From assembly GCF_010548525.1 (NCBI RefSeq), contig NZ_JAAGMG010000627.1:1-64000 (forward strand): a stretch of DNA of 64,000 bases. Direction: 5' to 3'. This document shows, piece by piece, positions 1,335 to 17,119 of the stretch (positions are counted from its first letter, which is position 1; each line of letters begins with the position of its first letter). Under the pieces are notes generated by a model. That model had not been told where the DNA came from. It ran no database searches and worked only from the letters and a program-made list of their open reading frames with translations. The translations under genes were made by a program, and so were the position numbers. The DNA is from Streptomyces sp. SID14478 (GTDB taxonomy: Bacteria > Actinomycetota > Actinomycetes > Streptomycetales > Streptomycetaceae).

Positions 1335-1472
1335 TCAGTCTTTGTTCTTCCTCCGTTTCTGATCCCGGAAAAACGCCCAGACGGCGACGGCAACAACTAC
1401 GACGAAAATGAGTGCCGTGGCCAAGGGGCTTCCTTTGACTCCTGTACCCATCACCAGGAGGGTGATCGTCAT
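1335..1472 (-). CDS. Tiny single-pass membrane protein (45 aa), paired with an Rhs tip; candidate immunity protein
   Basis: ATG at 1472 is preceded by AAAAGGGGACAG, a good ribosome site. The 45-residue product starts MTITLLVMGTGVKGSP, has one strongly hydrophobic helix at residues 17-35 (ATALIFVVVVAVAVWAFF) and ends with a basic tail, RDQKRRKNKD. There is no signal cleavage site, so a single transmembrane helix with a cytoplasmic basic tail is expected. It begins 12 nt after the stop of the Rhs-tip remnant at 1485-1640. The same pairing recurs five more times in the window. A role as immunity protein to the tip is inferred from gene order only. Confidence 0.65.
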   Translation of the reverse strand: MTITLLVMGTGVKGSPLATALIFVVVVAVAVWAFFRDQKRRKNKD

Positions 1473-1484
1473 TCTGTCCCCTTT

Positions 1485-1640
1485 TCAGAGCCAGAGACTG
1501 CTGATTACCGCGCCTGCAGTCAAGGCGATGCCAGCCGTAATAGACCTCGAAGCGACACCGAGCGCCGTCCCAGCCTTCGACAGCCCCTCTCCCCAACCGT
1601 CGATCCTGGAAAAGAATTCTGTCCGAGCCCGACCCCTCAC
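1485..1640 (-). pseudogene. Orphan Rhs C-terminal tip remnant
   Basis: This frame ends with a Gly/Ala-rich hydrophobic segment (GLSKAGTALGVASRS, then TAGIALTAGAVISSLWL) and stops with TGA at 1485-1487, 12 nt ahead of a tiny membrane-protein gene. The YD-repeat core is missing, so the call rests on position, composition and likeness to the tips at 1818 and 9398. The GTG at 1640 is the most upstream in-frame start and has no ribosome site, suggesting an untranslated remnant. Confidence 0.5.
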
Positions 1641-1672
1641 GCCAGGGGGAACCGGCAAGTCCGTTCGGCGTT

Positions 1673-1780
1673 CTACTTCTTTATCATCTTGATCCTTTTT
1701 TCGTACCTGGACCAGGAGAATGCACTGATCACCACAACCAGGGTGAGCATTATTGCTCCTGTAGGCCAGAAACCATTCAC
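1673..1780 (-). CDS. Tiny single-pass membrane protein (35 aa), paired with an Rhs tip; candidate immunity protein
   Basis: GTG at 1780 follows GGAAGGAGTGCC, one of the best ribosome sites in the region. The product begins (M)NGFWPTGAIMLTLVVVISAF and ends SWSRYEKRIKMIKK: one transmembrane helix at residues ~8-22 and a strongly basic tail, the same layout as the neighbouring tiny proteins at 1335, 2293 and 9259. It starts 37 nt after the end of the Rhs-tip remnant at 1818-2080. At 35 residues it is much smaller than known Rhs immunity proteins. Confidence 0.6.
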   Translation of the reverse strand: MNGFWPTGAIMLTLVVVISAFSWSRYEKRIKMIKK

Positions 1781-1817
1781 GGCACTCCTTCCGATTTGCG
1801 GACGATTACGTCCAGTC

Positions 1818-2080
1818 TCAATCACCGATCGCCGCACCACCGGCACAAACGGCTTGGTAGCCAATGTCAGTAATTTTTGCTGCCGTGCACCCAACTTCGG
1901 CGGCTGCCATTGTAGTTCCAACTCCTCCGCCAGCTGCGCTAAGAATGCCCGTAGCCGCAATCTGTCCGGGAGAATCGCCCTCGGGTCCATGGGGTTGATG
2001 GGGGCGCCGACTGCGTAGGCGTAGAGGTTGGATTCCTTGCCGGAGGGGTCGGGCTGGGCGAAGCGGTCGAGTTGGCGGCC
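1818..2080 (-). pseudogene. Orphan Rhs C-terminal end with frameshift
   Basis: The first part encodes the end of an Rhs core: GRQLDRFAQPDPSGKES, NLYAYAVGAPINPMDP. At about 1986 one base appears to be missing after the DP codons. The next frame continues with EGDSPGQIAATGILSAAGGG and ends CAGGAAIGD with TGA at 1818-1820. Upstream the frame is blocked by two consecutive TAG codons at the recombination edge. The core end matches that of the intact Rhs at 2465-5764, so this is a displaced tip. The 35-aa membrane protein gene follows it. Confidence 0.7.
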
Positions 2081-2168
2081 CTACTAACGGCTCCATCTAT
2101 CTGTACGAGGCGAGGTGTAGGTATGACACGGCGCGATCGTGCCGCTCGGCGATAACTGGCGAGCAAAC

Positions 2169-2230
2169 GCCGTGAAGCCCCTCGCAGGTGAGTGGTCTGG
2201 TGAGCACTCGTCCGCGAGGAGCTTCACGGC
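2169..2230. repeat. Long imperfect inverted repeat
   Basis: Arms 2169-2185 and 2214-2230 (17 bp, one mismatch) enclose 28 nt that contain a further 5-bp stem. It lies downstream of the Rhs operon (63 nt past the 48-aa gene) and could be a transcription terminator or the remains of an insertion-sequence end. Confidence 0.45.
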
Positions 2231-2292
2231 ATTGCACTACTGGCCCAGCGCTATTGTCGCGCGCCGGAGCAAGTCAGAGGAGGCTCTATGAG

Positions 2293-2439
2293 TCAGCGCC
2301 TCCGCTTACGCGTCGAACGCCCATAAATGATCATCGCGATGACGACTGCTATCGCCACCAGGAAAATGATCAACCCCGCGTTCCCGTCGGGCATGAGCCG
2401 TCCGCTATTCGCGAGCGGAATCTGTCCGAACTGCTTCAT
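2293..2439 (-). CDS. Tiny single-pass membrane protein (48 aa) downstream of the intact Rhs gene; candidate immunity protein
   Basis: ATG at 2439 is preceded by GAGGAGAGCT, a clear ribosome site, 25 nt after the Rhs stop codon. The product begins MKQFGQIPLANSGRLMPDG, has one helix at residues 21-39 (GLIIFLVAIAVVIAMIIYG) and ends RSTRKRRR. In WapA/Rhs systems the gene directly after the toxin tip encodes immunity. That would make this the cognate partner of the 99-residue tip, but the inference is positional only and a 48-residue membrane immunity protein would be unusual. Confidence 0.7.
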   Translation of the reverse strand: MKQFGQIPLANSGRLMPDGNAGLIIFLVAIAVVIAMIIYGRSTRKRRR

Positions 2440-2464
2440 AGCTCTCCTCTGCTGCGCACTACGC

Positions 2465-5400
2465 CTACGACCAGGCGTCAGTTGCAGAACTCTCGACTTC
2501 GTTACCAATGTACTCAGCCCCTGTGAAGCAGGCTGCGCCTACAACAAAGGCGCCTGCTCCCATGGTCGGAGCACCCGCAAGCGCAGCCCCTGCAACGCAG
2601 GCGTCTTCAGCCATGAAAGAAACGGCCTCACCAGCCGCAATGGCCGCAACCTGGCCCCAGTCACCATCCTGGGCGGCAACAGCCGCCTTCCCGAGGGAAT
2701 AGATTCCCGTGACCTTCCCGGCACCATCCAACATTCCCTTCATCGCGCCCTCAACGGACCAATTTCCGCTCGGGTCGATGCGGTTGACGGGGTCTCCAGC
2801 CGCGTAGGAGTACAGGTTGCTTTCCTTGCCGGAGGGGTCGGGCTGGGAGAAGCGGCCGAGTTGGGGGTCGTAGTAGCGAGCGCCCATCTTGTAGAGGCCG
2901 GACGGGTCCAGATAGGTGCCGGTATAGCGGTAGGGCTGGTTCGTACCGCTGGTGGTGCGGGCTTCGCCGTAGGGGCCATAGCTGTAGGTCGCCGTGCGCT
3001 TGCCGCTCGCGTCGACCAGGCCGATGACGCTGCCCTGGACATCGGTGAGGTAGTACTGGCTCGCCCCGCCGCTCGTCATGGCTGTCAGCGTGCCCGAGGC
3101 TTCCCGGACGAAACCGGTCGTGCCCTCACGGGTCATGCCGGTCGCGGCATTGGTGAAGGTCGAACTGCCCCGAGTGAGTCGGTCGTTGTTGTCGACGCCG
3201 GCGTAGCCGTACGTGGAGGCCGTCCCGGAAGCCGTCAGCGCGGACAGCTGGGCGTACGGCGTCCACTGGCCGCCCGAGCGGGTGCCGGTGGGCGAAGCGG
3301 CGGAGGTCTCGTTGCCGTCGCCGTCGTAGGTGAAACCGGTGTTGCCGCCCAGCGAGGTGAGTTCGTTCGCGTTGTTGTACTCGCGGGCGGACTGGGTGTC
3401 GGCGCACGCGGGGAGGCTGGTGCCGGTGGAGCGGCCGGTCATGTTGCCGGCCTTGTCGTAGCAGTAGGCCCAACCCGCGGTCGTGGCACTGTCCTTGGTC
3501 TCCACGGCCTTGGTCAGGCGGCCCTTGGAGTCGTAGGTGTAGGCGGTGGCGGCGCCGTCGACGGTGCGCTTGTTGATCTTGTCGGAGTCCTTGCCGGACT
3601 TGTTGTAGTCGTAGGAGATCGTGGACAGAACGGTGGAGCCGTTCTTGACCTCGATCTTCTGGGCGCGGCTGGACTTGTCGTAGTCCGTCTTCTGCACCGT
3701 GCCGCCCGGGTACGTGGTGGTGGTGCGGTCGCCGTTCTTGTCATAGTCGTAGGTGGTCTTGGCGCCGCCGGGCTGGGTGAGGGTGGTGAGTTGGTTGGCG
3801 TCGTTGTAGTCGTAGGTGAGGGTGCCGCCCGCGTCGGTGGCGGTCTTGACGTTGCCGGCCGCGTCGTAGGTCACCGAGCTCGCGCCGCCCGCCGGCAGGC
3901 TGCGGGTGCGCTCGCGGCTCTGCTCGTCATAGGTGTACGTGCTCGTGCCGGTGGGCGAGGTGCGGGTCTTGATGTTGCCGTCGGCGTCGTAGACGAACGT
4001 CGTGGTCTTGCCGTCGCTGGTCTGCGTCTTGAGGCGGTCGCGCTTGTCGTAGGTGTAGACCGTCTTGATGCCGCGGCCGTCGGTAACGGTGTCGGTACGG
4101 CCCAGGGCGTCGTAGGTGTAGGTGATGTCCTCCTGCGCGGAGGGGCGGTCGACCTTGGCCAGATTGCCCTTGGGGTCGTAGGTGAACGACGTCTTGTTGC
4201 CCTCGGGGTCGGTGGCCGCACAGCGCTGGCCGGGCAGGCCTTCGCAGTCCATGGCGCCGGACTTCGGGTTGTAGTCGTAGGTCCACTTCGCGCCGTCGGA
4301 ACCGGAGGTGGTGTCGGTCTGCGACATCATGTTGCCGGAAGTGTCGTAGCCGTTGGTGACCTTGTCACCGCTCGCGGAGGTCAGCGTCTCGGGGTAATGG
4401 CCGCCGGACTTCTGGGTCCAGGCCGCGGTCGACTGCGCCCCGGTGGGCTGGGTGGCGGTCTTGGGGTTGAAGGAGTCGTCGTAGTCGAACTTGACGGTGT
4501 TGCCCGCGGTGGAGCCTGTGCCCATGCCGTCGACAGCGCTGGTGACGTTGTTGTCCGGCCCCCACGACTTGGAGCGCTCGCGGCCGAGAGGATCGGTGGT
4601 CTTCTTCAGGCGCCAGCGGGCGTCGACCGTCTTCTCGGTGTTCTTGCCCCGCGGGTCGGTGACACGGACCACGCCTTCGCCCTCGCTGCCGGGCTGCGGC
4701 AGGATGTAGCGGAAGGCCGTGGTGGCGCCGGTGCCGGCGGTCTTGTCGACGACCCGGGTGATCGACGCGAGAAGGTTGGTGTTCCAGGTGAACCGCGTCT
4801 CGCGGCCCTCCGGCGTGGTCACCTTCGTCATCCGGTGCGAGGTGTCGTACTCGAAGGCCGTGGTCTTGCCGTCGGTGTCGGTGAACGTCTTGAGGTCGTT
4901 GCCCGACCACGTGTACGACGCGTAGCGGCCGGTGTTGTCGGTGACCTTGGTGATCTGCTTGCCGTCATTCCCGAAGTTCAGAGTGCGGCCCGACGCGGAA
5001 GTGATCTTCGAGGTGAACGCGCCGGAGTAGCTGATCGTGGTGGCGTTGCCGTTCTTGTCCTCGACCTTGCTCACGCGCGCGTCACCGGTCGTGCCCGAGC
5101 GGGTGAAGGTCGTCTTCTGCCCGTTCTTGCGCGAGGTCAGCGTGAACGACTTCTTGTCCGAGGACTGCGTGAGGTCCTGCTTGTAGCCGGGGGCCGGGGT
5201 GAACTTGGAGCCGTCGCGCTCGAACACGGCGATCGTGCCGGACGGACCCTGCACATAGACCGACGTGGGGTTCGGCTCGTGGATCAGGTAGTCGCTGCCG
5301 GTGGTCGCCTTCCAGCTGGTGTTCAGCCCGTTGTAGGCGAGACCGAAGGACAGGCCGGGGCCGGCGTCGGCGATGTCGAAGGCGTTCGCGGAGACCAGCA

Positions 5401-5764
5401 GGTTCCCGTTGCCGTAGTTGACCTGCGCGCCGACCGAGTCCGACAGCGGCGCCGCGAAGAACTCCGACCAGGGGACCTGGCCGGTGCCCAACCCCTGGAA
5501 CGTGGACTGGAGGATGCCTTCCTGGACCAGCTTGCGGTCCTTGCCCGGAATCCCGATCGGGGTACTCTTCGGGGCCTTGGTCTGTCCCACGGGCGACGCG
5601 GTGAGCCGGGGCGAGGCGGGTCGGTCGGCGGCGGGCGCGGCCGACGCCTGGGCCGGGATCAGGGCAGCGAGCAGCGCCGTCCCGGCTGCGGCGGCGACCA
5701 CTGCCGCGGCGGCAGAGCGTTTGCCACGTCTGGCTCGCCGGTTTTCGGGCATGACAGAGTGCAC
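2465..5764 (-). CDS. Secreted Rhs/YD-repeat protein (WapA-like polymorphic toxin candidate)
   Basis: GTG at 5764 follows AAGGAG at a good distance; the upstream in-frame ATG at 5785 has no site. The 1099-residue product has an N-terminal signal peptide (RRARRGKR then an Ala-rich helix ending AQASAAPA). An amino-terminal domain with NYGNGNLLVSANAF follows, then about 15 YD repeats (for example TYTYDALGRTDTVTDGRG), and the canonical Rhs core end GARYYDPQLGRFSQPDPSG / AAGDPVNRIDPSG near residue 1000. The remaining 99 residues are a variable tip rich in Gly and Ala with hydrophobic stretches (AAIAAGEAVSFMAEDACVAG) and no nuclease or deaminase motif that I recognise. A tiny membrane protein follows (2293-2439) and a secreted protein precedes it (5944-6513). 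Probably exported and involved in contact-dependent antagonism. Confidence 0.85.
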   Translation of the reverse strand: MHSVMPENRRARRGKRSAAAAVVAAAAGTALLAALIPAQASAAPAADRPASPRLTASPVGQTKAPKSTPIGIPGKDRKLVQEGILQSTFQGLGTGQVPWSEFFAAPLSDSVGAQVNYGNGNLLVSANAFDIADAGPGLSFGLAYNGLNTSWKATTGSDYLIHEPNPTSVYVQGPSGTIAVFERDGSKFTPAPGYKQDLTQSSDKKSFTLTSRKNGQKTTFTRSGTTGDARVSKVEDKNGNATTISYSGAFTSKITSASGRTLNFGNDGKQITKVTDNTGRYASYTWSGNDLKTFTDTDGKTTAFEYDTSHRMTKVTTPEGRETRFTWNTNLLASITRVVDKTAGTGATTAFRYILPQPGSEGEGVVRVTDPRGKNTEKTVDARWRLKKTTDPLGRERSKSWGPDNNVTSAVDGMGTGSTAGNTVKFDYDDSFNPKTATQPTGAQSTAAWTQKSGGHYPETLTSASGDKVTNGYDTSGNMMSQTDTTSGSDGAKWTYDYNPKSGAMDCEGLPGQRCAATDPEGNKTSFTYDPKGNLAKVDRPSAQEDITYTYDALGRTDTVTDGRGIKTVYTYDKRDRLKTQTSDGKTTTFVYDADGNIKTRTSPTGTSTYTYDEQSRERTRSLPAGGASSVTYDAAGNVKTATDAGGTLTYDYNDANQLTTLTQPGGAKTTYDYDKNGDRTTTTYPGGTVQKTDYDKSSRAQKIEVKNGSTVLSTISYDYNKSGKDSDKINKRTVDGAATAYTYDSKGRLTKAVETKDSATTAGWAYCYDKAGNMTGRSTGTSLPACADTQSAREYNNANELTSLGGNTGFTYDGDGNETSAASPTGTRSGGQWTPYAQLSALTASGTASTYGYAGVDNNDRLTRGSSTFTNAATGMTREGTTGFVREASGTLTAMTSGGASQYYLTDVQGSVIGLVDASGKRTATYSYGPYGEARTTSGTNQPYRYTGTYLDPSGLYKMGARYYDPQLGRFSQPDPSGKESNLYSYAAGDPVNRIDPSGNWSVEGAMKGMLDGAGKVTGIYSLGKAAVAAQDGDWGQVAAIAAGEAVSFMAEDACVAGAALAGAPTMGAGAFVVGAACFTGAEYIGNEVESSATDAWS

Positions 5765-5943
5765 GAGGAACTCTCCTTGGATCAACAGGCTTCACGGGCC
5801 ATGTGGTTGAGGAGCGGGACCCGGCGGGTGGCGGCCGGTGGGCGGCTGCCACCCGCGCACATCAGGTATGGGTCACGGCGCAGAGGGCCGCGAGGTCCCG
5901 TCGTGGAAGCCGGCGCGGGGCAGTCGCCCGCGCCGACGTCGGG

Positions 5944-6513
5944 TCAGCAGCGCTTGGACGACCTGCCGCTGTAAGCGCCCTCCTCGTCGGCGATGGTCAG
6001 TTTGCCGTCGCCGGAGGTGCAGTCGTCGACCGAGTCGGCGCCGTTGCCCCAGAACTCCTGGGACAACGAGTCATAGACGCGGCGCTCTCCTTGCAGCACC
6101 TCACGGTCGTAGTTCCAGACACCGACCTGGAGGTCGAACTTGATCTTCTTGTCCAGGAACGACTTCCACACCCACACGTAGCCGTAGTTCTGCTTGCACT
6201 TCGGCGAGTAGAACTGCTTCACCGAGGCGATCGTCTCGGTGCCCCGGTAGGCATAGGCCGTCGTGCCGATCTGGTAGGCGTCGGAGCACACGCCGGCCGC
6301 CGTCGCCGCTGCGGTGGCAGGGTTTCCGGCCTCCGAAGGAGCGCTCGAGGCCGGCGGCTTCGCGCCGGGAGCGGGGACGGGCCCCGTACCGGCGGATGCC
6401 GTGCCCGCTGCGGCCAGCGTCAGGGCGAACGCCCCCGACGCGGCGGCCGCACAGGCCAGCGTTCTCAGATTCTTCTGGGCGCGCGAAATCCGCGCACCGT
6501 TGGTGCGTCGCAT
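5944..6513 (-). CDS. Secreted protein, possibly DUF2690 (YjfA-like)
   Basis: ATG at 6513 follows GGGGGGAAG. The 189-residue product has a signal peptide (RRTNGARISRAQKNLR, an Ala-rich hydrophobic helix, then TASAGTGP). A Pro/Ala linker and a Cys-containing domain follow, including SDAYQIGTTAYAYRG, VKQFYSPKCKQNYGYVWVW and a C-terminal Cys. The YSPxCxxNYGYVW stretch resembles the DUF2690/YjfA family of secreted proteins of unknown function; this match is from memory. It is transcribed toward the Rhs gene, ending 179 nt before its start, so the two may be co-expressed. Confidence 0.7.
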   Translation of the reverse strand: MRRTNGARISRAQKNLRTLACAAAASGAFALTLAAAGTASAGTGPVPAPGAKPPASSAPSEAGNPATAAATAAGVCSDAYQIGTTAYAYRGTETIASVKQFYSPKCKQNYGYVWVWKSFLDKKIKFDLQVGVWNYDREVLQGERRVYDSLSQEFWGNGADSVDDCTSGDGKLTIADEEGAYSGRSSKRC

Positions 6514-7501
6514 CAAGACTTCCCCCCACAGGAAGACAGACCTCGCAGACCCCTGCGGTCACGAGGAGCCCACAACCTGTCACGGGACCTACACAAGCCG
6601 ATGGTTGTGCCCTCGAACATCTGCACCACACGGGCCAGAACAAGCCCCTCCGCATCACAGGTTCCAGACAGGAACGCACGTGTCACCGGCCCGCATGTCG
6701 ACGGAAGCCGGTCACAGGCCCGTCAAGTACCGGCAAAACATGACTGAAAACGATTGTTTGCGCTGCTCGAAGTGCGCGAGTGGTTATTCAACCGCGCCAT
6801 TCGAGCCAGGTGTAGACCATGCTTATGGCGCTCTTGTCCCGGTATGCTGTCCGTTTTGCCACGTCCTGGGGAGAGTTGAGGACGCAACGAAAATGGCGTC
6901 AGGCATGAGCCGCTCACCGAAACCCATTTGACAAGCGCTTTCTCTCGCGAGAGCACCGCCACCTGTTCCGTCAGCCGGTGAGCAGCCCGATGCGCAGGGC
7001 CGTGACCGTCGGTGTGTCCACGCCCGCGAAGGGCACCTGGACGTGCCACGCCAGCATGCCGAGGAGCTCCCGGTCCGCCTTGCCGGGCCCGCCGTTTCGG
7101 CGTGCGAGACCATCCGCGCGAACACTGTCCTGGTCGATCCGGGGATGTGTGGGGCTACGGATCGCGAACGTACGTAGGCGCGCAGGCAAGCTCACCCACC
7201 AACGACGTACGGCACGGGACAAGTTGGGCATGCGCAGGTGAACGGCCAGAAATCGGCGAGGCTGGTGAGGGGGTTTTGGGGCGAGTACAGGGGCGCTTTG
7301 AGACGGGGGTTTCCGTTCAGGCAACACCATGACAGCCCGTTGCAACCTGCCTACAAGAAGATTGCAAGTGTCATGCGGCATGCTCCTCAGCGCCCGGCCT
7401 CCCGGCCCGGCAAAACCCAAAGAGCCGATAGAGCATCCTGAAATACGGGACTGCCTTCCACGGCAACCTGCCTACACGAGACATAAAACATGCGGGGGGA
7501 A
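6514..7501. other. Nearly 1 kb without a recognisable gene
   Basis: No complete gene is supported. On the minus strand about 6971-7130 has coding-like composition (GKADRELLGMLAWHVQV, then a stop after RIGLLTG) and may be the end of a lost gene. A 14-base direct repeat (GCAACCTGCCTACA) is present at 7342-7355 and 7463-7476. The rest contains only short shadow frames. Confidence 0.4.
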
Positions 7502-7909: not shown

Positions 7910-7917
7910 ACGCGGCA

Positions 7918-7962: not shown

Positions 7963-8019
7963 CGGTAATCTCAACCTTTCACGCTCAAAGAGCTCGTAAC
8001 AGGATCTTGCTGAAACAGG

Positions 8020-8590
8020 TTGGTGGGGCGTTACCGGTGTGACGATTCGGCCGTTCGTGATGGTGTGGGTACTCGACCGTGGATCGTGGACGACGAGTTG
8101 TGGGCGCAGATCGAGCCGTTGCTTCCGCCATGGCCGGAGCGGTCGCCGGCGCCGCGGCCAGTATCGGACCGGCTCTGTCTCCAGGGCATCCACTTCGTTC
8201 TCTACAACGACATAGCCTGGCAACTCCTGCCCCTGGAGAAGGGTTTCGGCTCGGGACAGACATGCTGGCGCCGCCTGGACCGGTGGCAGCAGGCAGGGGT
8301 CTTCGACCGGCTGCACCAGCTCCTGCTCGCCAAGCTGAACGTGGCCGGCGAACTCGACTGGTCACGCGCGTGCGTGGATGGTTCACACGTCCGCACGAAA
8401 AAGGGGGACCCGACATCGGTCCGTCGCCGGTCGACCGGCGGAAGACGGGCAGCAAACATCACCTGATCTGCGACGGACGCGGCACACCGCTGAAGGTCAT
8501 CACGACCGCAGCCAACGTGAACGACGTCACCCAGACCCTTGCTCTGGTGGATGGGATCCCGCCCGTCGCCACGGCTCCAACCCGAACCGA
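8020..8590 (+). pseudogene. IS5 family transposase, frameshifted and 3'-truncated
   Basis: The first frame holds RPWIVDDELWAQIEPLLPPW and LDWSRACVDGSHVRTKKG, the N-terminal domain and first catalytic Asp region of IS5-type transposases. Near 8400 the reading frame must shift for the sequence to continue as GGPDIGPSPVDRRKTGSKHH and LICDGRGTPLKVITTAANVN. Homology ends at about 8575, where a second transposase fragment begins. Inactive. Confidence 0.8.
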
Positions 8591-8599
8591 GGCGAACTG

Positions 8600-9214
8600 C
8601 GCAAGCGCCGGATCCCGCCTGTCATCTCCCGCATTCGCCCAACTCGGCGCCGGGTTCTCGATATCGCAGGCCACCGCCTGGCGCTACGTGGACGAGGCCC
8701 TGGAGGTGCTGGTTCCTGGGCCCCGGGCCTCCACGAAGCCCTTACCGGCCTCGGTGACGGCGACCACGTCATTGTTGACGGCACGCTGATCCCCACCGAC
8801 CGCGTCCGCGCCGATCAGCCGTACTGCTCACAGAAGAACAAGAAGCACGGCATGAACGTGTAGGTCATCCCCCGCCCGGACGGCACACCGTTGCGGTTCT
8901 CCCGCGCGACACCCGGCCGCACACACGACCTGGCCTCCGCCCGCGCCCACGGCATCGTCCAGGCCTGCCTGACCAGGCAGATCCTCGTCCTCGCGGACCG
9001 CGCCTACAAGAGCGCCGGCGCCACCTTCCGCACACCGTACTACCACCACAGCGAACAGCCCGAGCACTACCAGCAGTTCAACCGTGACCACGCCCGACTC
9101 CGAGCTCCCGGCGAACGGGCCTTCGCCCAACTCAAGTCCTGGCGCATCATGCGCAGAGCACGCTCCTCCCCCGCCGCATCAGCCGCACCGCCCAAGCCAT
9201 CCACACGCTCCTGA
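8600..9214 (+). pseudogene. Second IS5-type (DDE_Tnp_4) transposase, broken
   Basis: Starts in mid-gene with the helix-turn-helix FSISQATAWRYVDEALEVL, then needs a frameshift near 8720 to read GDHVIVDGTLIPTDRVRADQ and KNKKHGMNV. An in-frame TAG at 8862-8864 follows, then RPDGTPLRFSRATPGRTHDL, LTRQILVLADRAYKSAGATF and GERAFAQLKSWRIMRRAR. The catalytic residues are therefore split over at least three segments. It is fused directly to the preceding fragment, so one element probably landed in or recombined with the other. Confidence 0.8.
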
Positions 9215-9258
9215 CATGCGACTACTCAGGATGAAAGAGGTTCAGTCAGAATGTCTCT

Positions 9259-9384
9259 CTACTTCTTTTCACGCTTGAGGCGCCAGTAGAGCAGGGCGAA
9301 CGCCACCACCATGACTATCGCTCCGAGGATGACGGTGGCTGCTGTGTTGTCCCCGATCCCAATGCCCACTACTGCTAGGTCCAC
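9259..9384 (-). CDS. Tiny single-pass membrane protein (41 aa), paired with an Rhs tip; candidate immunity protein
   Basis: GTG at 9384 follows AAAGGTGAAAGCAA. The product starts (M)DLAVVGIGIGDNT, has one helix at residues ~14-34 (AATVILGAIVMVVAFALLYW) and ends RLKREKK, the same topology and basic tail as the tiny proteins at 1335, 1673 and 2293. It begins 13 nt after a stop (9398-9400) that closes a coding-like frame ending GAGITGGWL, downstream of the displaced Rhs tip. The function is inferred from this repeated context only. Confidence 0.65.
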   Translation of the reverse strand: MDLAVVGIGIGDNTAATVILGAIVMVVAFALLYWRLKREKK

Positions 9385-9397
9385 TTGCTTTCACCTT

Positions 9398-9770
9398 TCA
9401 GAGCCATCCGCCCGTTATTCCTGCACCGTCGAAGTAACCCAATGCGGTGTACTCGAGGTCAACCCCCAGGTCTGTTTTCCCCCTATACCAGCCAGCTTTG
9501 TCGCGGCTCCGACGCCACCCGTCCCTAGTTCCAGGAGTCCGACCGCTGCGGTTTCCCCTGCAGAATTCCCGATGCGATGGAACCCGCAACACTCAAGCCA
9601 GTGCCCACTGCGGCCGCTCCGATTGCCGCGGGCACCGATACCGAGGCCAGGGCGACAAGTCCGACTACGGTCCCTGCCAGGCCGAGGCCTTCGCCCGGTG
9701 AGAGTAGTCCGCTGAGGTCGGCGCGGTTAACGGGGTCCCCGGCGGCGTAGGCGTAGAGGTTTACGGTCAT
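9398..9770 (-). pseudogene. Orphan Rhs C-terminal tip with frameshifts
   Basis: From 9770 the frame reads NLYAYAAGDPVNRADLSG, the exact end of an Rhs core, then a hydrophobic Gly/Ala tip (GEGLGLAGTVVGLVALASVS, AVGTGLSVAGSIASGI) and stops at 9525. Coding-like sequence continues in other frames to a stop at 9398-9400 (TDLGVDLEYTALGYFDGAG, ITGGWL), just before the 41-aa membrane protein gene. At least one frameshift has therefore probably occurred. Nothing of the Rhs core upstream of NLYAYA remains, as expected for a recombined tip cassette. Confidence 0.65.
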
Positions 9771-10505: not shown

Positions 10506-10587
10506 TCCCCGTCTGCGCTGCCGCTCCCGCCCCACCGGTCCCGCCCCGCGTTGACACTCGCGCGGCCCACGCCCCCTGAGGTTCTCC

Positions 10588-12073: not shown

Positions 12074-12262
12074 CACACGGGCCGTCTCTCCGGCCTCGGC
12101 CACCAGGTCGTCGTCGGCACCCGCGACCCCGAGGCCACCCTGGCCCGCACCGAGCCCGACATGATGGGCACCGAACCCTTCGCCGCCTTCCACGCCGCCC
12201 ACCCCGAGCTGACACTGGCTCCCTTCACCGAAGCCGACGGTGCAGCCAAGGACGTGTTCTAA
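12074..12262 (+). pseudogene. Fragment of an NAD(P)-binding F420-type oxidoreductase
   Basis: The frame reads HTGRLSGLGHQVVVGTRDPE, ATLARTEPDMMGTEPFAAFH and PELTLAPFTEADGAAKDVF, then TAA. This is the end of the first and the second strand of a Rossmann fold as in NADPH-dependent F420 reductases and related enzymes; the glycine loop upstream is lost and the protein ends about 70 residues in. The stop overlaps the stop of the convergent MFS gene by 4 bp, so the 3' part was probably replaced when that gene arrived. Confidence 0.6.
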
Positions 12263-13479
12263 CCATCGCGTCCAGGCAGGAGTCGCCCGCCGAGTAGCAC
12301 CGTGCAGGCCCCGACGGTCAGCAACCCGCCAGCAAGGAAGGTGCCACGCACGCCGGCGAGCGGCAGGACCAGTCCCCCGACCGCGGCGCCCACCGCGATG
12401 CCGGCGTTGTAAGCGCCGGAGTTCGCCGCAAGCGCCATATCGGTGCGGCCCGGCGCGCAATGCAGCATCTCGTTCTGGGTGGTCATGAACACCGGCCCGA
12501 GTGCACCGCCCATCAGCGCCAGGAACACCACCGCCGCCACCGGATGGGTGCCTGCCGCGTACAGGCCGAGCATGCCCACCGCCTGTGTGGCCACGGCAGT
12601 GGTCAGCGCGGACTGCGCGAAGCGGTCCAGCACCGCCCCGGTGATGCTCACCCCGGCCAGACAGGCAACACCGAAAACCACGAACAGGGCGCTGACCGCG
12701 CTCGAGGAGAACCCGCTCACGTCGCCCAGGAACTTCACGATGTAGGTATATCCCGCGAACGCCCCAGTCGCGGACAGGGTTCCTGCCGCCAGCACGATCC
12801 CGAACCTGCGGGTGTCGGGACTGGTTCCGTAGGCGGCGGGCTCTTCTTCCGGGCGTGAGCTCGGCAGCAGAACGGCGATCGTCACGAGGGAGATGAGCCC
12901 CAGAGCCGCCAGCATGGCGACTGGCACCTTCCAGTTGCTCTGCTGGCCAAGCCAGGTACCAGCGGGAACACCGAGCACGAGGGCGAGCGAACCGGCAACG
13001 GACAGCGCCCCGACTACACGTCCGCGGACCGCACGCACGAACAGGCCCACCGCGACAGGGCCCATCACAGCCCAGAACAGCGCCTGAGCGAGCGCGGTCA
13101 GCAGCCGCGCCACAAGGAGCAGCCAATAGGAGGTGGCCGACGCCGCAACGAGGCTGGACACCACCAGCGCGGCCAGTAGCCCCGTGAGCACATGGCGTCG
13201 GGGCACGGCCCGCACGGCGTGGGCCAGCGGCAAAGACGCCACTGCCACCGTCACGCCATAACCGGTGACCAAGAGACCGACCGCTGACACGGACACTCGC
13301 AGGCTTTCGGAGATGAGCTCCAGAAGGCCGACCGGCAGATTCTCCGCAGTGTTGAAGGTGAACGCAGCCAGCATCAGCGCTACGAGCACTGCCAACCTGT
13401 GCCATGGAGCCGGTCGCGGCGTGACCCTTCGGTCTCGTCCTGAGCTCGTCCGTTGAGCCTGTTCCGTGGCACCGTCCAT
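12259..13479 (-). CDS. MFS transporter, DHA1 family (AraJ/CmlR-like)
   Basis: ATG at 13479 follows GAGGTGCATTT. The 406-residue product has twelve predicted helices, the first being LAVLVALMLAAFTFNTAENL. The family motif-A region is degenerate (ASLPLAHAVRAVPRRHVLTG); AGSLALVLGVPAGTWLGQQ matches antiporter motif C. The sequence type (TAENLPVGLLELIS) fits drug or metabolite exporters such as AraJ and Cmx/CmlR. It stands alone, with no linked regulator. Substrate unknown. Confidence 0.85.
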   Translation of the reverse strand: MDGATEQAQRTSSGRDRRVTPRPAPWHRLAVLVALMLAAFTFNTAENLPVGLLELISESLRVSVSAVGLLVTGYGVTVAVASLPLAHAVRAVPRRHVLTGLLAALVVSSLVAASATSYWLLLVARLLTALAQALFWAVMGPVAVGLFVRAVRGRVVGALSVAGSLALVLGVPAGTWLGQQSNWKVPVAMLAALGLISLVTIAVLLPSSRPEEEPAAYGTSPDTRRFGIVLAAGTLSATGAFAGYTYIVKFLGDVSGFSSSAVSALFVVFGVACLAGVSITGAVLDRFAQSALTTAVATQAVGMLGLYAAGTHPVAAVVFLALMGGALGPVFMTTQNEMLHCAPGRTDMALAANSGAYNAGIAVGAAVGGLVLPLAGVRGTFLAGGLLTVGACTVLLGGRLLPGRDG

Positions 13480-14051
13480 AAATGCACCTCACCGGGCTCA
13501 CATGTCCCGCCGCAACCGAATTTTTCTGTCATGTGGGGACGCTCAAATGATCGAGCGTTGGCTTCGAAGCCGCCCACTCCTGGGTTCGAAACTGCCCCAC
13601 TCAAGAACGCCAACAAGCTGGAGAAGAAAGGGAACAGTGCACGGTCGGAATAACCCCCTCCCGCCAGTAGTGGCCGCTCTGCACAGCGGCTGCCGCCCCG
13701 ACCCTCAGCCGGACAGCGCCAGCAAGAGGATCGCGGCCCTGCGCGAGTCTGGTCCTGGCCGTACCGGGCGACGGCCAGTGGGCCTATTCCTCGGCTGCGG
13801 CCCGCCGTGTCTGTGCGGTGTCGGTCCGCTTGCTGCAGCTGGCGGACCCACTCCCGCGAGATGCCGATGGCCTCGGCGGTCGCCGGGCCGTCTGACGTTC
13901 CAGCTGCCGTATGCCATGCCCGAGGAGCGACATCCGCGCTCTCCAGCTCGACAGTTACGCCACCGCGAACCGACTACGGTCCTGGCGAAAGCAGTTGAGC
14001 CGCCACGAACGAACCTGGGCCCGTAGCCGCGCTCCTGCCGCCCAATGTGGT
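13480..14051. other. No gene recognised
   Basis: Only shadow frames. A minus-strand segment near 13850-13900 (AIGISREWVRQLQQ) resembles a helix-turn-helix end and may be debris of a regulator or recombinase, but no frame around it holds together. Confidence 0.35.
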
Positions 14052-15014
14052 CTACCGGTCCAGGACTGCGTGGACCTTCGTCTCTGTCCGGTTTCGCCGT
14101 GCGGCCCGGTACTGCTGGATCAGTGTCTTCATAATGGCTGGCAGGGACACATCGGCGCCTCCGTCCACCAGGTTGCCACCCGCCTGCTGCACTGCGTCCA
14201 GCTTGAGATGCTGCATACGGCACAGCGCCGCGACAAAGGGGCGCGTCGCAGGGGCGACGAGCTGGGGAAGCTGGTCGGCCACGCGCAGCTGATCCTGTGC
14301 CAGGGCGGTCTGCTCCTGCACGAGCGCGGCCAGCGAGCGTCGTACATCGGCCGTGGGCTGGACGATGCCGTTCACGGTCAGCTGATGCCGGTCGAGGTCC
14401 TGCTGGGGGATGCCGACGACGCCGCCGGCCGCATCCTCTGCGAGATCGTCGAGCCAGTCCAAGCGCTGCATCGACTCGATGAGTGCTCGGCATCGGGCTT
14501 CGAATGCGGACTGATCGGCGTGTGCACCGGCAGGAGCGACGAAGCCGGCCATGAGCATGAAGGCGGGCAGCGAGTAACCCGTGACGTACTCCTGCAGCTC
14601 CTTTTCGGTGCGGAACCCCGCGTAGTCGACGTCCAAGTGCGCGCCGTCGAGGAAGGCCTCAACTCGCGGTCGCAGGCCGGGATGGCGAGCGACGGTGTCG
14701 GCGAGCGTCCGGAGGGTGGCGTCGGTGCCGGCCACCGGCTCGTCGAGCGCAGCACGGGTGGCGTCTGCCCATTGCGCCAGCGCGGTCTTGCGGTCGGCGA
14801 CCGCCCCGGTGTCGATGAGATTGTCGGTGGCGTGCATGAAGGCTACGGCGGCGATGACCTGTGGATGCAGAGCGGGCGCCAGCAGGAGCCGTACCGCCAG
14901 GTATTCCTTCTTCGCGAAGGACCTCACGAGATCGCGCTGACGGGAGTAGTCCGCGGCCAGGTCGGCGCGCCTGATTCCGGCAGTGCGCAGCGTCTTCTTC
15001 CAGGTGGGCATCAC
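14052..15014 (-). CDS. Squalene/phytoene synthase family protein
   Basis: The frame begins with adjacent GTG (15014) and ATG (15011) after TAGGA. The 320-residue product shows the two Asp-rich motifs of head-to-head prenyl synthases: DNLID (residues 64-68) and DWLDDLAED (D190 and D194), plus TGYSLPAFMLMAGF. The family joins two prenyl diphosphates to phytoene, squalene or a dehydrosqualene. No other carotenoid or hopanoid gene lies within the window, so the product cannot be told. The first Asp motif has an Asn-Leu interior that is less acidic than usual (DDIVD in many homologues). Confidence 0.85.
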   Translation of the reverse strand: MMPTWKKTLRTAGIRRADLAADYSRQRDLVRSFAKKEYLAVRLLLAPALHPQVIAAVAFMHATDNLIDTGAVADRKTALAQWADATRAALDEPVAGTDATLRTLADTVARHPGLRPRVEAFLDGAHLDVDYAGFRTEKELQEYVTGYSLPAFMLMAGFVAPAGAHADQSAFEARCRALIESMQRLDWLDDLAEDAAGGVVGIPQQDLDRHQLTVNGIVQPTADVRRSLAALVQEQTALAQDQLRVADQLPQLVAPATRPFVAALCRMQHLKLDAVQQAGGNLVDGGADVSLPAIMKTLIQQYRAARRNRTETKVHAVLDR

Positions 15015-15202
15015 AAAATCCTAGGAGGTGCGACGGGTTGTGCGGGCTGCCAGCGGGCGGACGGTGCGCGACCTGCGGCCCCGAACAGGCACGCGTGGAC
15101 GCACAGCTCTTCAAGGCGGGAGGTCCAGGCACAAGCCTGCCTAAAGGGTGTTGTACACGGCTGTGTTCGGGCAGGTCGGAGCCGGTTGGCGCGGTCCTCT
15201 GG

Positions 15203-15880
15203 TCATGCTGCGAGGGCGTGGTTGTGCGTCTGGGCGACCGCCTGGACAGCGTGGTGGAAGCCGTTGCCGTGTTGCCGGCAGTCGCGGAGGTTCTTGTAGT
15301 TCTTCAGCCGACCGATCACATGCTCCACCCGCGCGCGGACCGTGCGGTGGGCGTCGTTGTCGGCCTCTTCGCCTGGCATCAGCTCGCGTCGGGGGCGTTT
15401 GCGATGTGGGGTGACCATGCCGCAGTTCAGGTAGGCGCCGTCGGCCAGCACGGTCACTCCCTGGCAGTGCGCGGCAGGCCCGGACGCCCGCCAGGCGTGC
15501 GCGTGCGCGGTGGTGCCCGGGAGCGGCTGGGCGGCGGCGATCACGAGGCGGGTATCGGCATCCACGATGACCTGCACATTCGCCGAGAACCGGTAGTTGC
15601 GTGAGGACGAGCTGACCTTGCGGTCACGGACGGGTACCAGGGCGCAGTCCACGATCCACAGCCGGTCCGCCGCATCGGCCGGCCGCGTCACCGGCCTCCA
15701 ACGCGAGCAGCGGGCCCAGCCTCTGGATAACCCGGCACACCGTCGAGGACGAGATCCCGAACAGCGGGCCGAGCTGCCGCATGGTCAGGTTCGTGCGGTA
15801 GTACACGGCCCCAGCCATACAACGGAGATGCCCACATCGCGACCTTGTCCAATGCCCTTTAGCAAATTCGGCTGACGTGC
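15203..15880 (-). pseudogene. IS5-type (DDE_Tnp_4) transposase, truncated and frameshifted
   Basis: One frame (to about 15690) gives YRTNLTMRQLGPLFGISSST, the HTH. Another (15691-15203) gives DRLWIVDCALVPVRDRKVSS, NVQVIVDADTRLVIAAAQPL, VLADGAYLNCGMVTPHRKRP and RARVEHVIGRLKNYKNLRDC, the DDE domain. The two halves are joined by a frameshift near 15690 and the usual N-terminal ~60 residues are absent. Inactive. Confidence 0.8.
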
Positions 15881-15892
15881 AGTATGACAACT

Positions 15893-16108
15893 TTACGCAC
15901 CCCTGTCGTCCTTCTCTCCGACAACAGTAGAAGGGAACAAGAATCCCAGTACACCACCCATGAGCAGTCCGGCCATTGCAAAGAGAGGAAGACTCGAAGC
16001 TTCCACCCTCATTACAAGACCCGCAATGAGGGCACCCAGCGAGTTAAATATCGCTCCGATAATGCTGGCATTTCGCCGCCGCCGAACCGTCTCTCGCCTC
16101 TGGGGCAT
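15893..16108 (-). CDS. Small two-pass membrane protein (71 aa), possibly paired with an Rhs tip
   Basis: ATG at 16108 follows GAGAGGAGTTTC. The product has a basic N-terminus (PQRRETVRRRRN), two hydrophobic helices (SIIGAIFNSLGALIAGLVM, residues ~15-33, and LPLFAMAGLLMGGVLGFLF, ~40-58) and an acidic end. It starts 40 nt after a stop (16149-16151) that closes a short tip-like frame. It is larger than the other tiny membrane genes here but sits in the same place relative to Rhs debris. No family recognised. Confidence 0.65.
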   Translation of the reverse strand: MPQRRETVRRRRNASIIGAIFNSLGALIAGLVMRVEASSLPLFAMAGLLMGGVLGFLFPSTVVGEKDDRGA

Positions 16109-16148
16109 GAAACTCCTCTCACGCTATTCAGCCGACCTATTCCCGAGG

Positions 16149-16220
16149 TCACCCGAAGAGACTCTTGACGGCCTTTCCGGACTCGCCACTTAAGCCGAGA
16201 TCAACCGGGAGGTAGCGTCC
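16149..16220 (-). pseudogene. Possible short Rhs-tip remnant
   Basis: A 23-codon frame, GRYLPVDLGLSGESGKAVKS then LFG and TGA, ends 40 nt before the 71-aa membrane protein gene. PVDLGLSG recalls the end of an Rhs core (PVNRIDPSG). The evidence is thin and rests on the arrangement seen for the other five tips. Confidence 0.3.
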
Positions 16221-16278
16221 TCACCCACTCACGCACAGGCCTCGACCAGTTGGGCATGCGCTGATGGTGCCGTGTCTT

Positions 16279-16315
16279 GTTGAGGCCGCACCGCTGAAAG
16301 CGGTGCGGCCTCAAC
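16279..16315 (-). terminator. Strong hairpin terminator
   Basis: Perfect 17-bp arms (16279-16295, 16299-16315) with a GAA loop, 69 nt downstream of the 52-aa membrane protein gene on the minus strand. Confidence 0.75.
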
Positions 16316-16383
16316 GGGTGAGCGTGGGTGCTGCCGTGCCGCGACGTAGGCACCGTGAACGGCCGATTGCCCCCCTGACCTGC

Positions 16384-16542
16384 CTACGGAGACCTGTCTA
16401 CGCGCAACAAGCCCCCAAGCAGGAGCAACGCTCCAATACTGCTGACAACGGTGTAGGTAACGTCGCCGTCAACTATCGAGAATCCTAGGAGCAGAAGGAA
16501 GATGCACATCGCTGCCAGCATGACCCATGCTCGAGAATTCAC
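16384..16542 (-). CDS. Tiny two-pass membrane protein (52 aa) translationally coupled to an Rhs tip; candidate immunity protein
   Basis: GTG at 16542 overlaps the TAG stop of the Rhs tip by one base (TAGTG), a classic coupling arrangement; AAAAGGAT lies upstream inside the tip codons. The product starts (M)NSRAWVMLAAMCIFLLLLGF, has a second helix (YTVVSSIGALLLLGGLL, residues ~30-46) and ends RVDRSP. Coupling to the tip is the best evidence in the window that tip and tiny membrane protein form one functional unit. Confidence 0.7.
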   Translation of the reverse strand: MNSRAWVMLAAMCIFLLLLGFSIVDGDVTYTVVSSIGALLLLGGLLRVDRSP

Positions 16543-17119
16543 TAGAAAATCCTTTTTACGAGGCTGTATCCGCTGTTCGGGCCGCAGTCTATGAACTCGT
16601 CGGATGCGGCACCGGTTTTCACCCAGTGAGGGCACTCGTCATTCACGTTCGCGAGGGCGAATCTCCCACCGATCGTAACGAAAGTGGCTGCCGCCCCTCC
16701 CCCGCTTGCGGCTGCTCCGCCGACAGCCTCTACGGCCATTCCTACTGCTTTCACGCTCTTGTTGAGCAGCTCGGTGGGGTCAATGCGGTTGACGGGGTCG
16801 CCTGCGGCGTAAAGGTAGGGGTTTTGTTCCTGGCCGGAGGGGTCGGGATGGGTAAAGCGGCCGATGCTGGGGTCGTAGTAGCGGGCCGCGTAGTGGGAGA
16901 GGCCGCTGGGGCCGTGGAAGCCGCCGGCGAACTGGTAGGGCTGGGTGACCTGTTCGCTGGTCGTAGCGCGGGTGACGCCGCGGGGACTGTAGGCGTACGT
17001 GGTGACCTTCGCACCGGTCTCGTCGGTGCCGCCGATGACGGAGCCGAACGCGTCGGTGGGTAGTAGTACGCCTTCCCGCTGCGGGTCATGGGATTCAGTG
17101 TGCCCCCGGGCTCGCGCAC
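16542..17119 (-). pseudogene. Displaced Rhs C-terminal end with frameshift
   Basis: From 17119 the frame reads REPGGTLNPMTRSGKAYYY, then needs a shift near 17058 to continue TDAFGSVIGGTDETGAKVTT, GLSHYAARYYDPSIGRFTHP, DPSGQEQNPYLYAAGDPVNR and IDP. The 77-residue tip follows: LLNKSVKAVGMAVEAVGGAA, a Gly/Ala stretch, then a Cys-containing end NDECPHWVKTGAASDEFIDC. This is the longest core remnant of the displaced ends (about 100 residues). It lacks a start and is cut at 17119 beside the divergent toxin-antitoxin genes. Confidence 0.8.

What the first reader, a model, noticed from the sequence alone, without database searches (positions are those of the whole stretch)
1335..17119. Six-fold repeated pair: hydrophobic Rhs tip plus tiny transmembrane gene
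One intact secreted Rhs gene (2465-5764) and five displaced ends each finish just before a tiny gene for a 35-71 aa membrane protein. The gaps between tip stop and tiny-gene start are 12, 37, 25, 13, 40 and -1 nt for the tips ending at 1485, 1818, 2465, 9398, 16149 (weak) and 16542. The tips share no obvious enzyme motif but are rich in Gly, Ala and aliphatic residues. Most of the tiny proteins have one helix and a basic tail (for example RDQKRRKNKD, RSTRKRRR, RLKREKK). In WapA/Rhs systems the gene after the tip encodes immunity. A set of membrane-active tips with minimal membrane immunity proteins would be a new class of polymorphic toxin. Gene order and motifs are seen; the toxin/immunity role is inferred.
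Basis: partly seen in the sequence, partly recalled or inferred. Interest (0 to 1): 0.85.

Follow-up and report, generated by a model that had tools for sequence, protein, structure and literature searches.

The report
Tiny membrane toxins with tiny antidotes
Some soil bacteria of the genus Streptomyces appear to carry a family of secreted delivery proteins whose exchangeable ends are small, probably membrane-damaging toxins, usually followed by a gene for a tiny membrane protein that probably protects the producer, and some of these ends are predicted to fold like a known virulence protein whose action is still debated.

Summary
The pattern is real and much larger than the window. The window's Rhs gene belongs to a subfamily of about 1,100-residue secreted Rhs proteins in Streptomyces. 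In the loci fetched, most variable ends are short (155 of 168 are 45-165 residues), Gly/Ala-rich and without enzyme families. A tiny transmembrane ORF with a ribosome site follows 112 of 154 ends, against 1 of 167 other gene ends, 0 of 20 large Streptomyces Rhs ends and 0 of 770 shuffled sequences. Tip type and tiny-protein type co-vary independently of the core, tiny genes show codon-level constraint, tip plus tiny gene move as one cassette, and tiny genes outlive tips, often in strings. Toxin and immunity genes behave so. In the window three pairs (2, 3, 4) have homologues of both partners; tiny 1 has a relative but its tip has none; pair 6 has only position; pair 5 is unsupported. Most tips look like glycine-zipper helices with an even cysteine number; a second class is predicted as an eight-stranded barrel closest to Rhodococcus Vap proteins. 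Nearest known system: Tse5/Tsi5. New variant of a known kind; toxicity and immunity are untested.

The parts
2465..5764 (-). Intact Rhs/YD-repeat gene with N-terminal hydrophobic export signal; core ends with DPSG-x17-DPSG, then the tip
   Evidence: RHS_repeat E 2.8e-41; Rhs_assc_core residues 936-1007; open frame of 1108 aa
2765..2839 (-). End of the core: two DPxG motifs, Asp to Asp 21 residues, the Rhs autocleavage-type motif
   Evidence: both Asp invariant in 21 of 21 aligned cores; spacing 21 in 133 of 142 cores
2468..2764 (-). Tip 3, 99 aa, Gly/Ala-rich with two Cys; predicted membrane-active toxin domain
   Evidence: aligned with 26 other tips chosen for a similar Cys pair; low-confidence three-helix model
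2293..2439 (-). Tiny 3, 48 aa, one TM helix and basic tail; predicted immunity protein
   Evidence: relatives next to homologous tips in L047, L156, L115
1818..2090 (-). Module 2: remnant of core end plus interrupted tip, related to the intact tips in L003 and L114
   Evidence: 1670-1983 matches L114 at 69% and 1980-2090 matches several core ends
1673..1780 (-). Tiny 2, 35 aa, open although its tip is broken
   Evidence: scores 0.71 and 0.43 against the partners in L114 and L003
1485..1658 (-). Module 1: tip-like frame without core and without a relative in my set
1335..1472 (-). Tiny 1, 45 aa, one TM helix and basic tail
   Evidence: 76% identical tiny gene without recognisable tip in L002/L110, the S. 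parvulus locus of L111
9398..9761 (-). Module 4: last part of a core plus a frame-broken tip; its intact version is the main tip in S. parvulus (L111) and S. massasporeus (L113)
   Evidence: block 9227-9761 matches L111 at 90%, 9246-9761 matches L113 at 93%; frames
9259..9384 (-). Tiny 4, 41 aa, open although its tip is broken
   Evidence: scores 0.92, 0.80 and 0.65 against the partners in L113, L002 and L051
16773..17063 (-). Displaced core fragment of module 6
   Evidence: 56% identity to the query core
16542..16772 (-). Tip 6, 76 aa; one marginal match (E 8.8e-4) in 391 other genomes
16384..16542 (-). Tiny 6, 52 aa, two hydrophobic segments by eye; GTG start overlaps the tip stop; no similar partner among the 127 pairs
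15893..16108 (-). Tiny 5, 71 aa membrane protein; no supported tip upstream, no relative in 391 other Streptomyces genomes

Best explanation
These are toxin/immunity cassettes of a secreted Rhs (WapA-type) family seen in Streptomyces. The Rhs protein is exported by its signal peptide; its YD-repeat shell is expected to enclose the tip and to cut it free at the DPxG/DPxG site (inferred from Rhs relatives). The freed tip, usually a small glycine-zipper helical hairpin with a cysteine pair or, in a second class, a four-cysteine beta barrel, inserts into or permeabilises the cytoplasmic membrane of neighbouring bacteria. Because it acts at the membrane from outside and is shielded before release, a tiny one- or two-helix membrane protein with a cytoplasmic basic tail is enough for protection, by binding the tip in the bilayer. 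New tip-plus-tiny cassettes recombine onto the core end; old ones are displaced, where the tip decays and the tiny gene is kept. Shown here: cassette structure, co-variation, constraint, tip decay with tiny retention, composition, topology signals. Inferred: toxicity, membrane target, cleavage, disulfides, protection.
For: Tiny TM ORF after 112 of 154 tips vs 1 of 167 control gene ends, 0 of 20 large Rhs ends, 0 of 770 shuffles; 123 of 145 tips in 133 non-redundant loci with a wider window. Co-variation: of 191 tip-similar pairs 88 have similar tiny proteins, permutation mean 2.3, maximum 11 in 1000; with core similarity 0.85-1, 1 of 524 tip-dissimilar pairs vs 19 of 39 tip-similar pairs. pN below pS in 31 of 31 disjoint tiny-gene pairs. 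Tiny genes without an intact core-linked tip in 60 of 185 places (42 with no recognisable tip, 10 with a broken one, 5 with an open tip but no core, 3 with an unrecognisable tip); 4 of 185 have an internal stop. Cassette block and tip swap between the window and S. parvulus/S. massasporeus. GxxxG spacing z 12.4; even Cys number in 139 of 143 tips. Basic C-terminal side in 40 of 48 one-segment proteins, less basic loop than ends in 65 of 72 two-segment ones. DPxG spacing 21 in 133 of 142 cores.
Against: No experiment. 10 of 148 tips have no recognisable partner, seven of them on open frames of more than 1,000 aa, and five of the ten resemble tips that have one. Two tips have larger membrane partners of 155 and 201 aa. 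Over all pairs the rank correlation of tip and tiny similarity is only 0.15, as most pairs are unrelated. The AF2 model of the window tip is of low confidence (pLDDT 59.6). Window pair 5 is unsupported, and pair 6 and tip 1 lack good relatives.
Confidence: 0.8

Rival explanations
1. Toxin and immunity as above, but the tip does not make pores by itself: it binds and jams a particular membrane protein or lipid precursor, in the manner of receptor-dependent bacteriocins, and the tiny protein shields that target.
For: Tips are short and bacteriocin-like with cysteine pairs; tip families are many (57 including 34 singletons), which a receptor requirement could explain; no pore activity has been measured.
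Against: GxxxG periodicity and the resemblance of the second class to membrane-permeabilising Vap proteins (PMC10100859, passages) fit direct membrane action.
Confidence: 0.25
2. The hydrophobic tip is an anchor or a membrane-entry segment of the Rhs protein, not a toxin, and the tiny membrane gene is a docking or secretion partner.
For: A much larger Streptomyces Rhs protein carries a similar C..C glycine hairpin in front of what reads like an intein-type (HINT) domain (L197; the HINT name is recalled), so such hairpins can be non-terminal.
Against: An anchor need not diversify into many families on similar cores, need not co-vary with a partner independently of the core, and gives no reason to keep tiny genes without recognisable tips.
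Confidence: 0.1
3. The tiny protein is the toxin (a holin-like or type I toxin-like membrane peptide) and the tip neutralises it or is irrelevant.
For: Single-helix proteins of 27-50 aa with basic tails look like holin or TisB-type peptides (recalled).
Against: Tiny genes stand without an intact core-linked tip in 60 of 185 places; 9 of 11 runs of three to five tiny genes include some without a recognisable tip, which a toxin without its antidote should not survive.
Confidence: 0.04
4. Artefact: chance hydrophobic ORFs behind gene ends in GC-rich DNA.
For: Short hydrophobic frames can occur by chance in GC-rich sequence.
Against: 1 of 167 control ends, 0 of 770 shuffles; co-variation; pN below pS in 31 of 31 pairs.
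Confidence: 0.01

Closest known systems
Tse5/Tsi5 (Pseudomonas aeruginosa T6SS Rhs effector with pore-forming C-terminus; PMC9637101 and PMC10684867, passages read)
   Same: Rhs shell with a C-terminal membrane-active domain without predicted enzyme function; paired Asp protease at the shell end; immunity is a membrane protein with two predicted TM regions
   Different: Tse5 is a T6SS cargo of a Gram-negative; here the carriers have a signal-like N-terminus, tips are mostly 55-110 aa with even cysteine counts, 48 of 120 partners have a single hydrophobic segment (down to 27 aa), and the tips fall into dozens of families
CDI ionophore toxins with CdiI (PMC11630599, passages read)
   Same: polymorphic membrane-depolarising C-terminal domains; hydrophobic immunity proteins, two-helix hairpins with both ends in the cytoplasm; specificity of cognate pairs
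   Different: delivered by CdiA with separate entry domains; CdiI are 72-100 aa; ionophore domains are predicted five-helix bundles; no cysteine pattern was noted in the passages read
Glycine-zipper LXG toxins EsxX, TelE and TspA (PMC12744356, passages; PMC10434224, abstract start in listing)
   Same: glycine-zipper C-terminal domain acting on Gram-positive membranes; membrane-integrated immunity; orphan immunity genes in islands
   Different: T7SS export with an LXG domain, no Rhs shell; EsxX also needs a cytoplasmic immunity pair
Rhodococcus equi Vap proteins (VapD 4csb, VapB 4cv7 and 7b1z, VapG 5aeo; PMC4118825 and PMC10100859, passages read)
   Same: for the beta class only: the predicted eight-stranded barrel aligns over all 96 residues with VapD, Z 11.5, rmsd 2.2; Gly-rich towards an aromatic residue at or near the C-terminus; VapA binds and permeabilises liposomes
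   Different: 8% identity, no Pfam match in 8 of 8 members; Vaps are secreted or surface virulence proteins without Rhs carrier; immunity partners are not mentioned in the passages read
WapA/Rhs toxins of Gram-positives and Tox-WTIP (PMC3482391, passages read)
   Same: secreted Rhs with exchangeable C-termini; Tox-WTIP is a two-helix pore-forming prediction linked to RHS repeats
   Different: Tox-WTIP carries RxxR and Wx[ST]IP motifs and is listed for proteobacteria; no Streptomyces family of this kind appeared in the passages seen

Membership tests
Rhs/YD-repeat polymorphic toxin, WapA type | RHS/YD repeats and Rhs-associated core domain | tested here: met
   PF05593 E 2.8e-41; TIGR03696 E 5.3e-23 at residues 936-1007
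Rhs/YD-repeat polymorphic toxin, WapA type | DPxG..DPxG cleavage motif before the tip | tested here: met
   spacing 21 in 133 of 142 cores; Leu first in 116 of 142 tips, Asn in the window gene. Cleavage itself not testable
Rhs/YD-repeat polymorphic toxin, WapA type | export signal instead of T6SS PAAR domain | tested here: met
   hydrophobic N-terminal stretch in 49 of 58 full-length frames, window included, by a crude hydropathy test, not a signal-peptide predictor; no PAAR family in the Pfam scan of the window protein
Rhs/YD-repeat polymorphic toxin, WapA type | variable tip with linked, co-varying immunity gene | tested here: met
   exceptions: 10 of 148 tips without a partner
Rhs/YD-repeat polymorphic toxin, WapA type | toxicity of tip and protection by partner | not testable with these tools
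   needs expression experiments
Tse5/Tsi5 | T6SS-delivered Rhs with PAAR-like N-terminus | tested here: not met
   no PAAR in the Pfam scan of the window Rhs protein; signal-like N-terminus
Tse5/Tsi5 | sequence relation of tips to Tse5-CT | not tested
   Tse5 sequence was not fetched
CDI ionophores | five-helix ionophore bundle and 72-100 aa two-helix immunity | tested here: inconclusive
   window tip model has three helices at pLDDT 59.6; 72 of 120 tiny proteins have two segments, 48 one
Glycine-zipper toxins (EsxX/TelE type) | GxxxG repeats | tested here: met
   G-G spacing 4: 577 vs 391 in shuffles, z 12.4; spacings 1-3 depleted
Glycine-zipper toxins (EsxX/TelE type) | LXG domain | tested here: not met
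   Pfam scan of the window Rhs protein shows only RHS_repeat above its cut-off
R. equi Vap family (beta class only) | eight-stranded barrel fold | tested here: met
   Z 10.9-11.5 to four Vap chains, next 8.2; no Foldseek E-value at or below 0.001; model pLDDT 73.5 with the other four models at 38-55, so tentative
R. equi Vap family (beta class only) | sequence profile match | tested here: inconclusive
   no Pfam match for 8 of 8 members at E up to 10; no Vap chain in the PDB profile search

The most novel reading that the evidence does not exclude
One Streptomyces Rhs subfamily is a dedicated launcher for cysteine-stapled, bacteriocin-sized membrane toxins of two unrelated folds, guarded by immunity proteins as small as 27 residues; and its beta class has the Vap fold, so the Rhodococcus Vap virulence barrel, whose mechanism is debated, would share its fold, and perhaps its membrane-permeabilising action, with an antibacterial toxin that has membrane immunity proteins.
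Probability: 0.4. Interest if true: 0.85.

Novelty: new variant of a known kind. Interest (0 to 1): 0.74.

Why it matters
Many described Rhs toxins are enzymes (recalled); here an Rhs core family seems to carry mainly membrane-type tips, with 57 sequence families, 34 of them singletons, among 127 tip/partner pairs. It offers many natural matched pairs for asking how a single transmembrane helix of 27-50 residues can block a specific membrane toxin. It suggests a short-range protein weapon for some Streptomyces, a genus best known for diffusible antibiotics. If the barrel class is truly Vap-like, it gives an antibacterial context in which the action of that fold could be tested.

Tried and rejected
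Searches that led nowhere: Pfam, NCBIfam and PADLOC for tips or tiny proteins (best matches were generic TM-helix hits, one over its cut-off, LPXTG_anchor on tiny 4); PDB sequence search with the two tip profiles; a class-wide profile search of the alpha tips, 9 of 394 genomes, 8 of them the same genus (the first look scored only 13 candidates a genome).

Considered and rejected: pair 5 as a tip/tiny pair (no core, no relative). The secreted 190-aa protein upstream of the Rhs gene as a general part of the system: found in only 11 of 57 full-length loci. Fold search with the alpha tip model: not done, since pLDDT 59.6 would make matches meaningless.

Weaknesses of my own counts: the loci were chosen by core similarity, and neighbours of one species can be related. 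The tiny ORF was chosen by hydropathy and is wrong for a few loci (for example L182, L157, L057, L097); L032 and L130 do have partners that one search missed. In one search window module 4 is labelled 'core+intact tip' although its tip is frame-broken, so 125 is slightly too high; 'no tip seen' means no tip of my set recognised, an unknown tip could be there. A first version of that count was confounded by duplicate loci and is not used. The 45 tips and the 27 were picked for a cysteine pair at similar spacing, so the invariance of the two Cys is partly built in. Some tip families are subgroups of that superfamily. The pN/pS pairs were selected for protein similarity (tip score 0.5 or more, tiny score 0.4 or more), which favours low pN; among pairs with tip score 0.7 or more, 79% of 76 pass a tiny score of 0.35 anyway. 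The four odd-cysteine tips look frame-broken by eye; that was not tested separately. The statement that this is not in print rests on nine searches of an open-access library, of which only listings and passages of six papers were seen.


Full report
What is there. The window is a 64-kb stretch of a Streptomyces genome (G000:C58; the genus is inferred from the named relatives, 79 of 80 of which are Streptomyces and one Actinacidiphila). All features of the finding are on the minus strand. The intact gene, 5764 to 2465, encodes an Rhs/YD-repeat protein with a hydrophobic N-terminal export signal, RHS repeats (E 2.8e-41) and an Rhs-associated core domain. After the conserved core end comes a 99-residue tip and then, 25 nt later, a 48-residue membrane protein. 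Displaced modules lie at 1335-2090, 9259-9761 and 15893-17063. Tips 2 and 4 are interrupted when read against intact relatives, tip 1 has no core and no similar tip in my set, the frame ending at 16149 is not a recognisable tip, and tip 6 sits on a core fragment.

How general it is. The last 158 residues of the core were searched in 392 genomes of the genus; 380 have some match, of which 79 matches in 59 genomes (my count of the listing) exceed 100 bits and form the close subfamily; many of the weaker ones listed lie in much larger frames, and the listing was cut by the tool. I fetched 30 loci with that search and 80 further stretches by place, plus 80 loci of a scan of named genomes (221 relatives found, the best 80 kept). 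In 191 sequences there were 188 distinct core ends. Leaving out 20 loci of large Rhs proteins taken as a control, 168 remained: 155 tips of 45-165 residues, 12 shorter (broken) and 1 longer. In 58 core ends with a complete frame of 900 residues or more, the part before the tip, counted from the preceding stop, is 1,006-1,111 residues in 48 and longer in 10.

Is the tiny gene more than chance? With fixed criteria (25-130 codons, start from -30 to +120, ribosome-site match of at least 4 of 6, 19-residue hydropathy of at least 2.1) 112 of the 154 tips with enough downstream sequence have one; 1 of 167 other gene ends, 0 of 20 large Rhs ends and 0 of 770 shuffled downstream sequences do. In 133 non-redundant loci with a wider window, 123 of 145 tips have at least one. 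With relaxed criteria 128 of 148 tips got a partner (only cores of at least 60 bits). Of the other 20, two have one that the script missed (L032, L130), two have a larger membrane protein (155 and 201 aa), four are broken tips with the tiny gene kept or fused (L101, L059, L013, L065), two are broken tips without one (L149, L103), and ten have none: L166, L096, L067, L168, L184, L035, L175, L033, L037 and the second core end of L052. Five of these ten are beta-class tips; seven of the ten (in their longer named copies) lie on open frames of more than 1,000 residues; five score 0.42 or more against a tip that has a partner. They are real exceptions.

Do tip and tiny gene belong together? Among 127 distinct pairs, 191 tip-similar combinations include 88 with similar tiny proteins; 1000 permutations gave a mean of 2.3 and a maximum of 11. 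Over all combinations the rank correlation is weak (0.15), since most are unrelated. The link does not come from the core: with core similarity 0.85-1, 1 of 524 tip-dissimilar combinations but 19 of 39 tip-similar ones have similar tiny proteins. The cassette can be seen directly. Window and S. parvulus (L111) Rhs genes align at 87% down to window position 2765, the last base of the core, and then stop. The displaced module 9227-9761 aligns at 90% with the main core end, tip and tiny gene of L111, and 9246-9761 at 93% with S. massasporeus L113. Thus the window holds, as a decayed extra copy, the cassette that is the main one in related species.

Is the tiny gene a real, selected gene? pN is below pS in 31 of 31 disjoint pairs (pooled 0.236 vs 0.555); for the tips in 30 of 31 (0.133 vs 0.514). 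The pairs were chosen for protein similarity, which favours this result. Homology-based searching found 185 tiny-gene places in the non-redundant loci: 125 behind a core with a tip in frame, 10 behind broken tips, 5 behind open tips without core, 3 behind unrecognisable tips and 42 with no tip of my set in sight; 4 of 185 contain a stop. Eleven runs of three to five tiny genes occur, nine of them with members lacking a recognisable tip. Retention of immunity genes as orphans and in strings is described for other polymorphic toxin systems (PMC12744356, passages; PMC9484751, abstract start in listing).

What the tips are. 143 distinct tips of 45-120 residues contain 19.9% Gly and 17.9% Ala. Gly pairs at spacing 4 are enriched (577 vs 391 expected, z 12.4) while spacings 1 to 3 are depleted, the mark of glycine-zipper helices (computed on the 128 tips not caught by the beta pattern; three beta tips and a few broken ones remained among these). 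The cysteine number is even in 139 of 143 (2 in 109, 4 in 22, 0 in 8), against about 51% expected for independent residues; the four exceptions look frame-broken by eye. Forty-five tips picked for a Cys pair 16-25 apart and a loose turn pattern, the window tip among them, align as a helix, a Gly-Asp turn, a small-residue helix with Cys, in many a Pro-Thr-x-Gly turn, and a second helix with Cys; 27 of them were used for a model. AlphaFold2 gives three helices for the window tip, at low confidence (pLDDT 59.6). Disulfides are an inference from parity and from secretion.

A second class. 18 tips (15 by pattern, 3 more by eye) have four Cys, Gly-rich sequence and an aromatic C-terminus. The model of one (L163) is an eight-stranded barrel with pLDDT 73.5; the other four models were poor. 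Foldseek gave only weak E-values (none at or below 0.001), led by R. equi Vap proteins (E 0.06; TM-score 0.71 to VapD). Structural realignment puts four Vap chains on top at Z 10.9 to 11.5 (VapD: 96 of 96 residues, rmsd 2.2, 8% identity), then a Brucella barrel at 8.2 and others below 7. No sequence profile supports it. VapD was described as a novel fold with a Gly-rich bald surface that bound detergent (PMC4118825, passages), and VapA permeabilises liposomes (PMC10100859, passages). I regard this as a strong lead, not a proof. In three tip families, one of them in the beta class, two tiny genes recur in tandem, one reading as one helix and one as two.

What the tiny proteins are. Of 120 distinct ones (from 127 pairs, leaving out partners above 85 aa and repeats; a few are wrong ORF choices), 48 have one hydrophobic segment and 72 have two. 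In one-segment proteins the C-terminal side is the more basic in 40 of 48; in two-segment ones the loop is less basic than the ends in 65 of 72; 102 of 120 end in a basic tail. By the positive-inside rule the tails lie in the cytoplasm. The smallest are 27 residues (L021, L060). CDI ionophore immunity proteins are 72-100 residues with the same hairpin topology (PMC11630599, passages).

Mechanism. The two Asp of the DPxG..DPxG motif are invariant in 21 of 21 aligned cores and 21 residues apart in 133 of 142. In Tse5 an Asp pair near the shell end cuts the toxin free after a Leu, the shell hides a membrane-active toxin, and a membrane immunity protein suffices (PMC10684867 and PMC12744356, passages). 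The same logic fits here: secretion, shielding, cleavage, insertion into a neighbour's membrane, neutralisation in the bilayer by the tiny helix. Each of these steps is inferred for the Streptomyces proteins.

Known or new. Nine searches of the open-access library listed no paper whose title or abstract start names this Streptomyces family or Vap-like Rhs tips; subscription papers were not searchable. The kind of system is known (Tse5/Tsi5); the family, its size, the cysteine parity, the one-helix partners and the barrel class are, as far as I could see, not described. Hence a new variant of a known kind.

Noticed in passing
window 5944-6516 (-): Secreted-looking protein of about 190 aa just upstream of the Rhs gene; homologues upstream in 11 of 57 full-length loci only; no Pfam or NCBIfam family above its cut-off.
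   Followed up: partly
L197 1-2730 (+): A much larger Streptomyces Rhs protein (2574-aa frame) has a similar C..C glycine hairpin not at its end but before a region that reads like an intein-type (HINT, recalled) domain; the tips may derive from, or give rise to, membrane-entry segments.
   Followed up: partly
L196 1360-1767 (-): A tip with the C..APTAG..C pattern on an Rhs gene of another family in the same class, the only match outside the genus in 394 genomes; no tiny TM gene was evident behind it by eye.
   Followed up: no
window 2762-2764 (-): The intact window gene has Asn where 116 of 142 tips start with Leu after DPxG; whether its tip is cut normally is an open question.
   Followed up: no
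L030, L167, L027, L152, L050, L057 downstream of the tips: Three tip families carry two tandem tiny genes, one reading as one helix and one as two, suggesting two-part immunity.
   Followed up: partly
L021 and L060, downstream of the tip: Candidate immunity proteins of only 27 aa, 21 of 26 compared residues identical between two genomes with pS 0.76 and pN 0.09.
   Followed up: yes
window 8014-9214 (+) and 15203-15784 (-): Frames that read like DDE transposase fragments (recalled, by eye, not searched) lie between the displaced modules; they may have scattered the modules.
   Followed up: no
L065 1038-1520 (-), and a similar frame in L097: Tip frame runs on through a lost stop into a tiny membrane protein, giving a tip-tiny fusion frame of 161 aa.
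   Followed up: no
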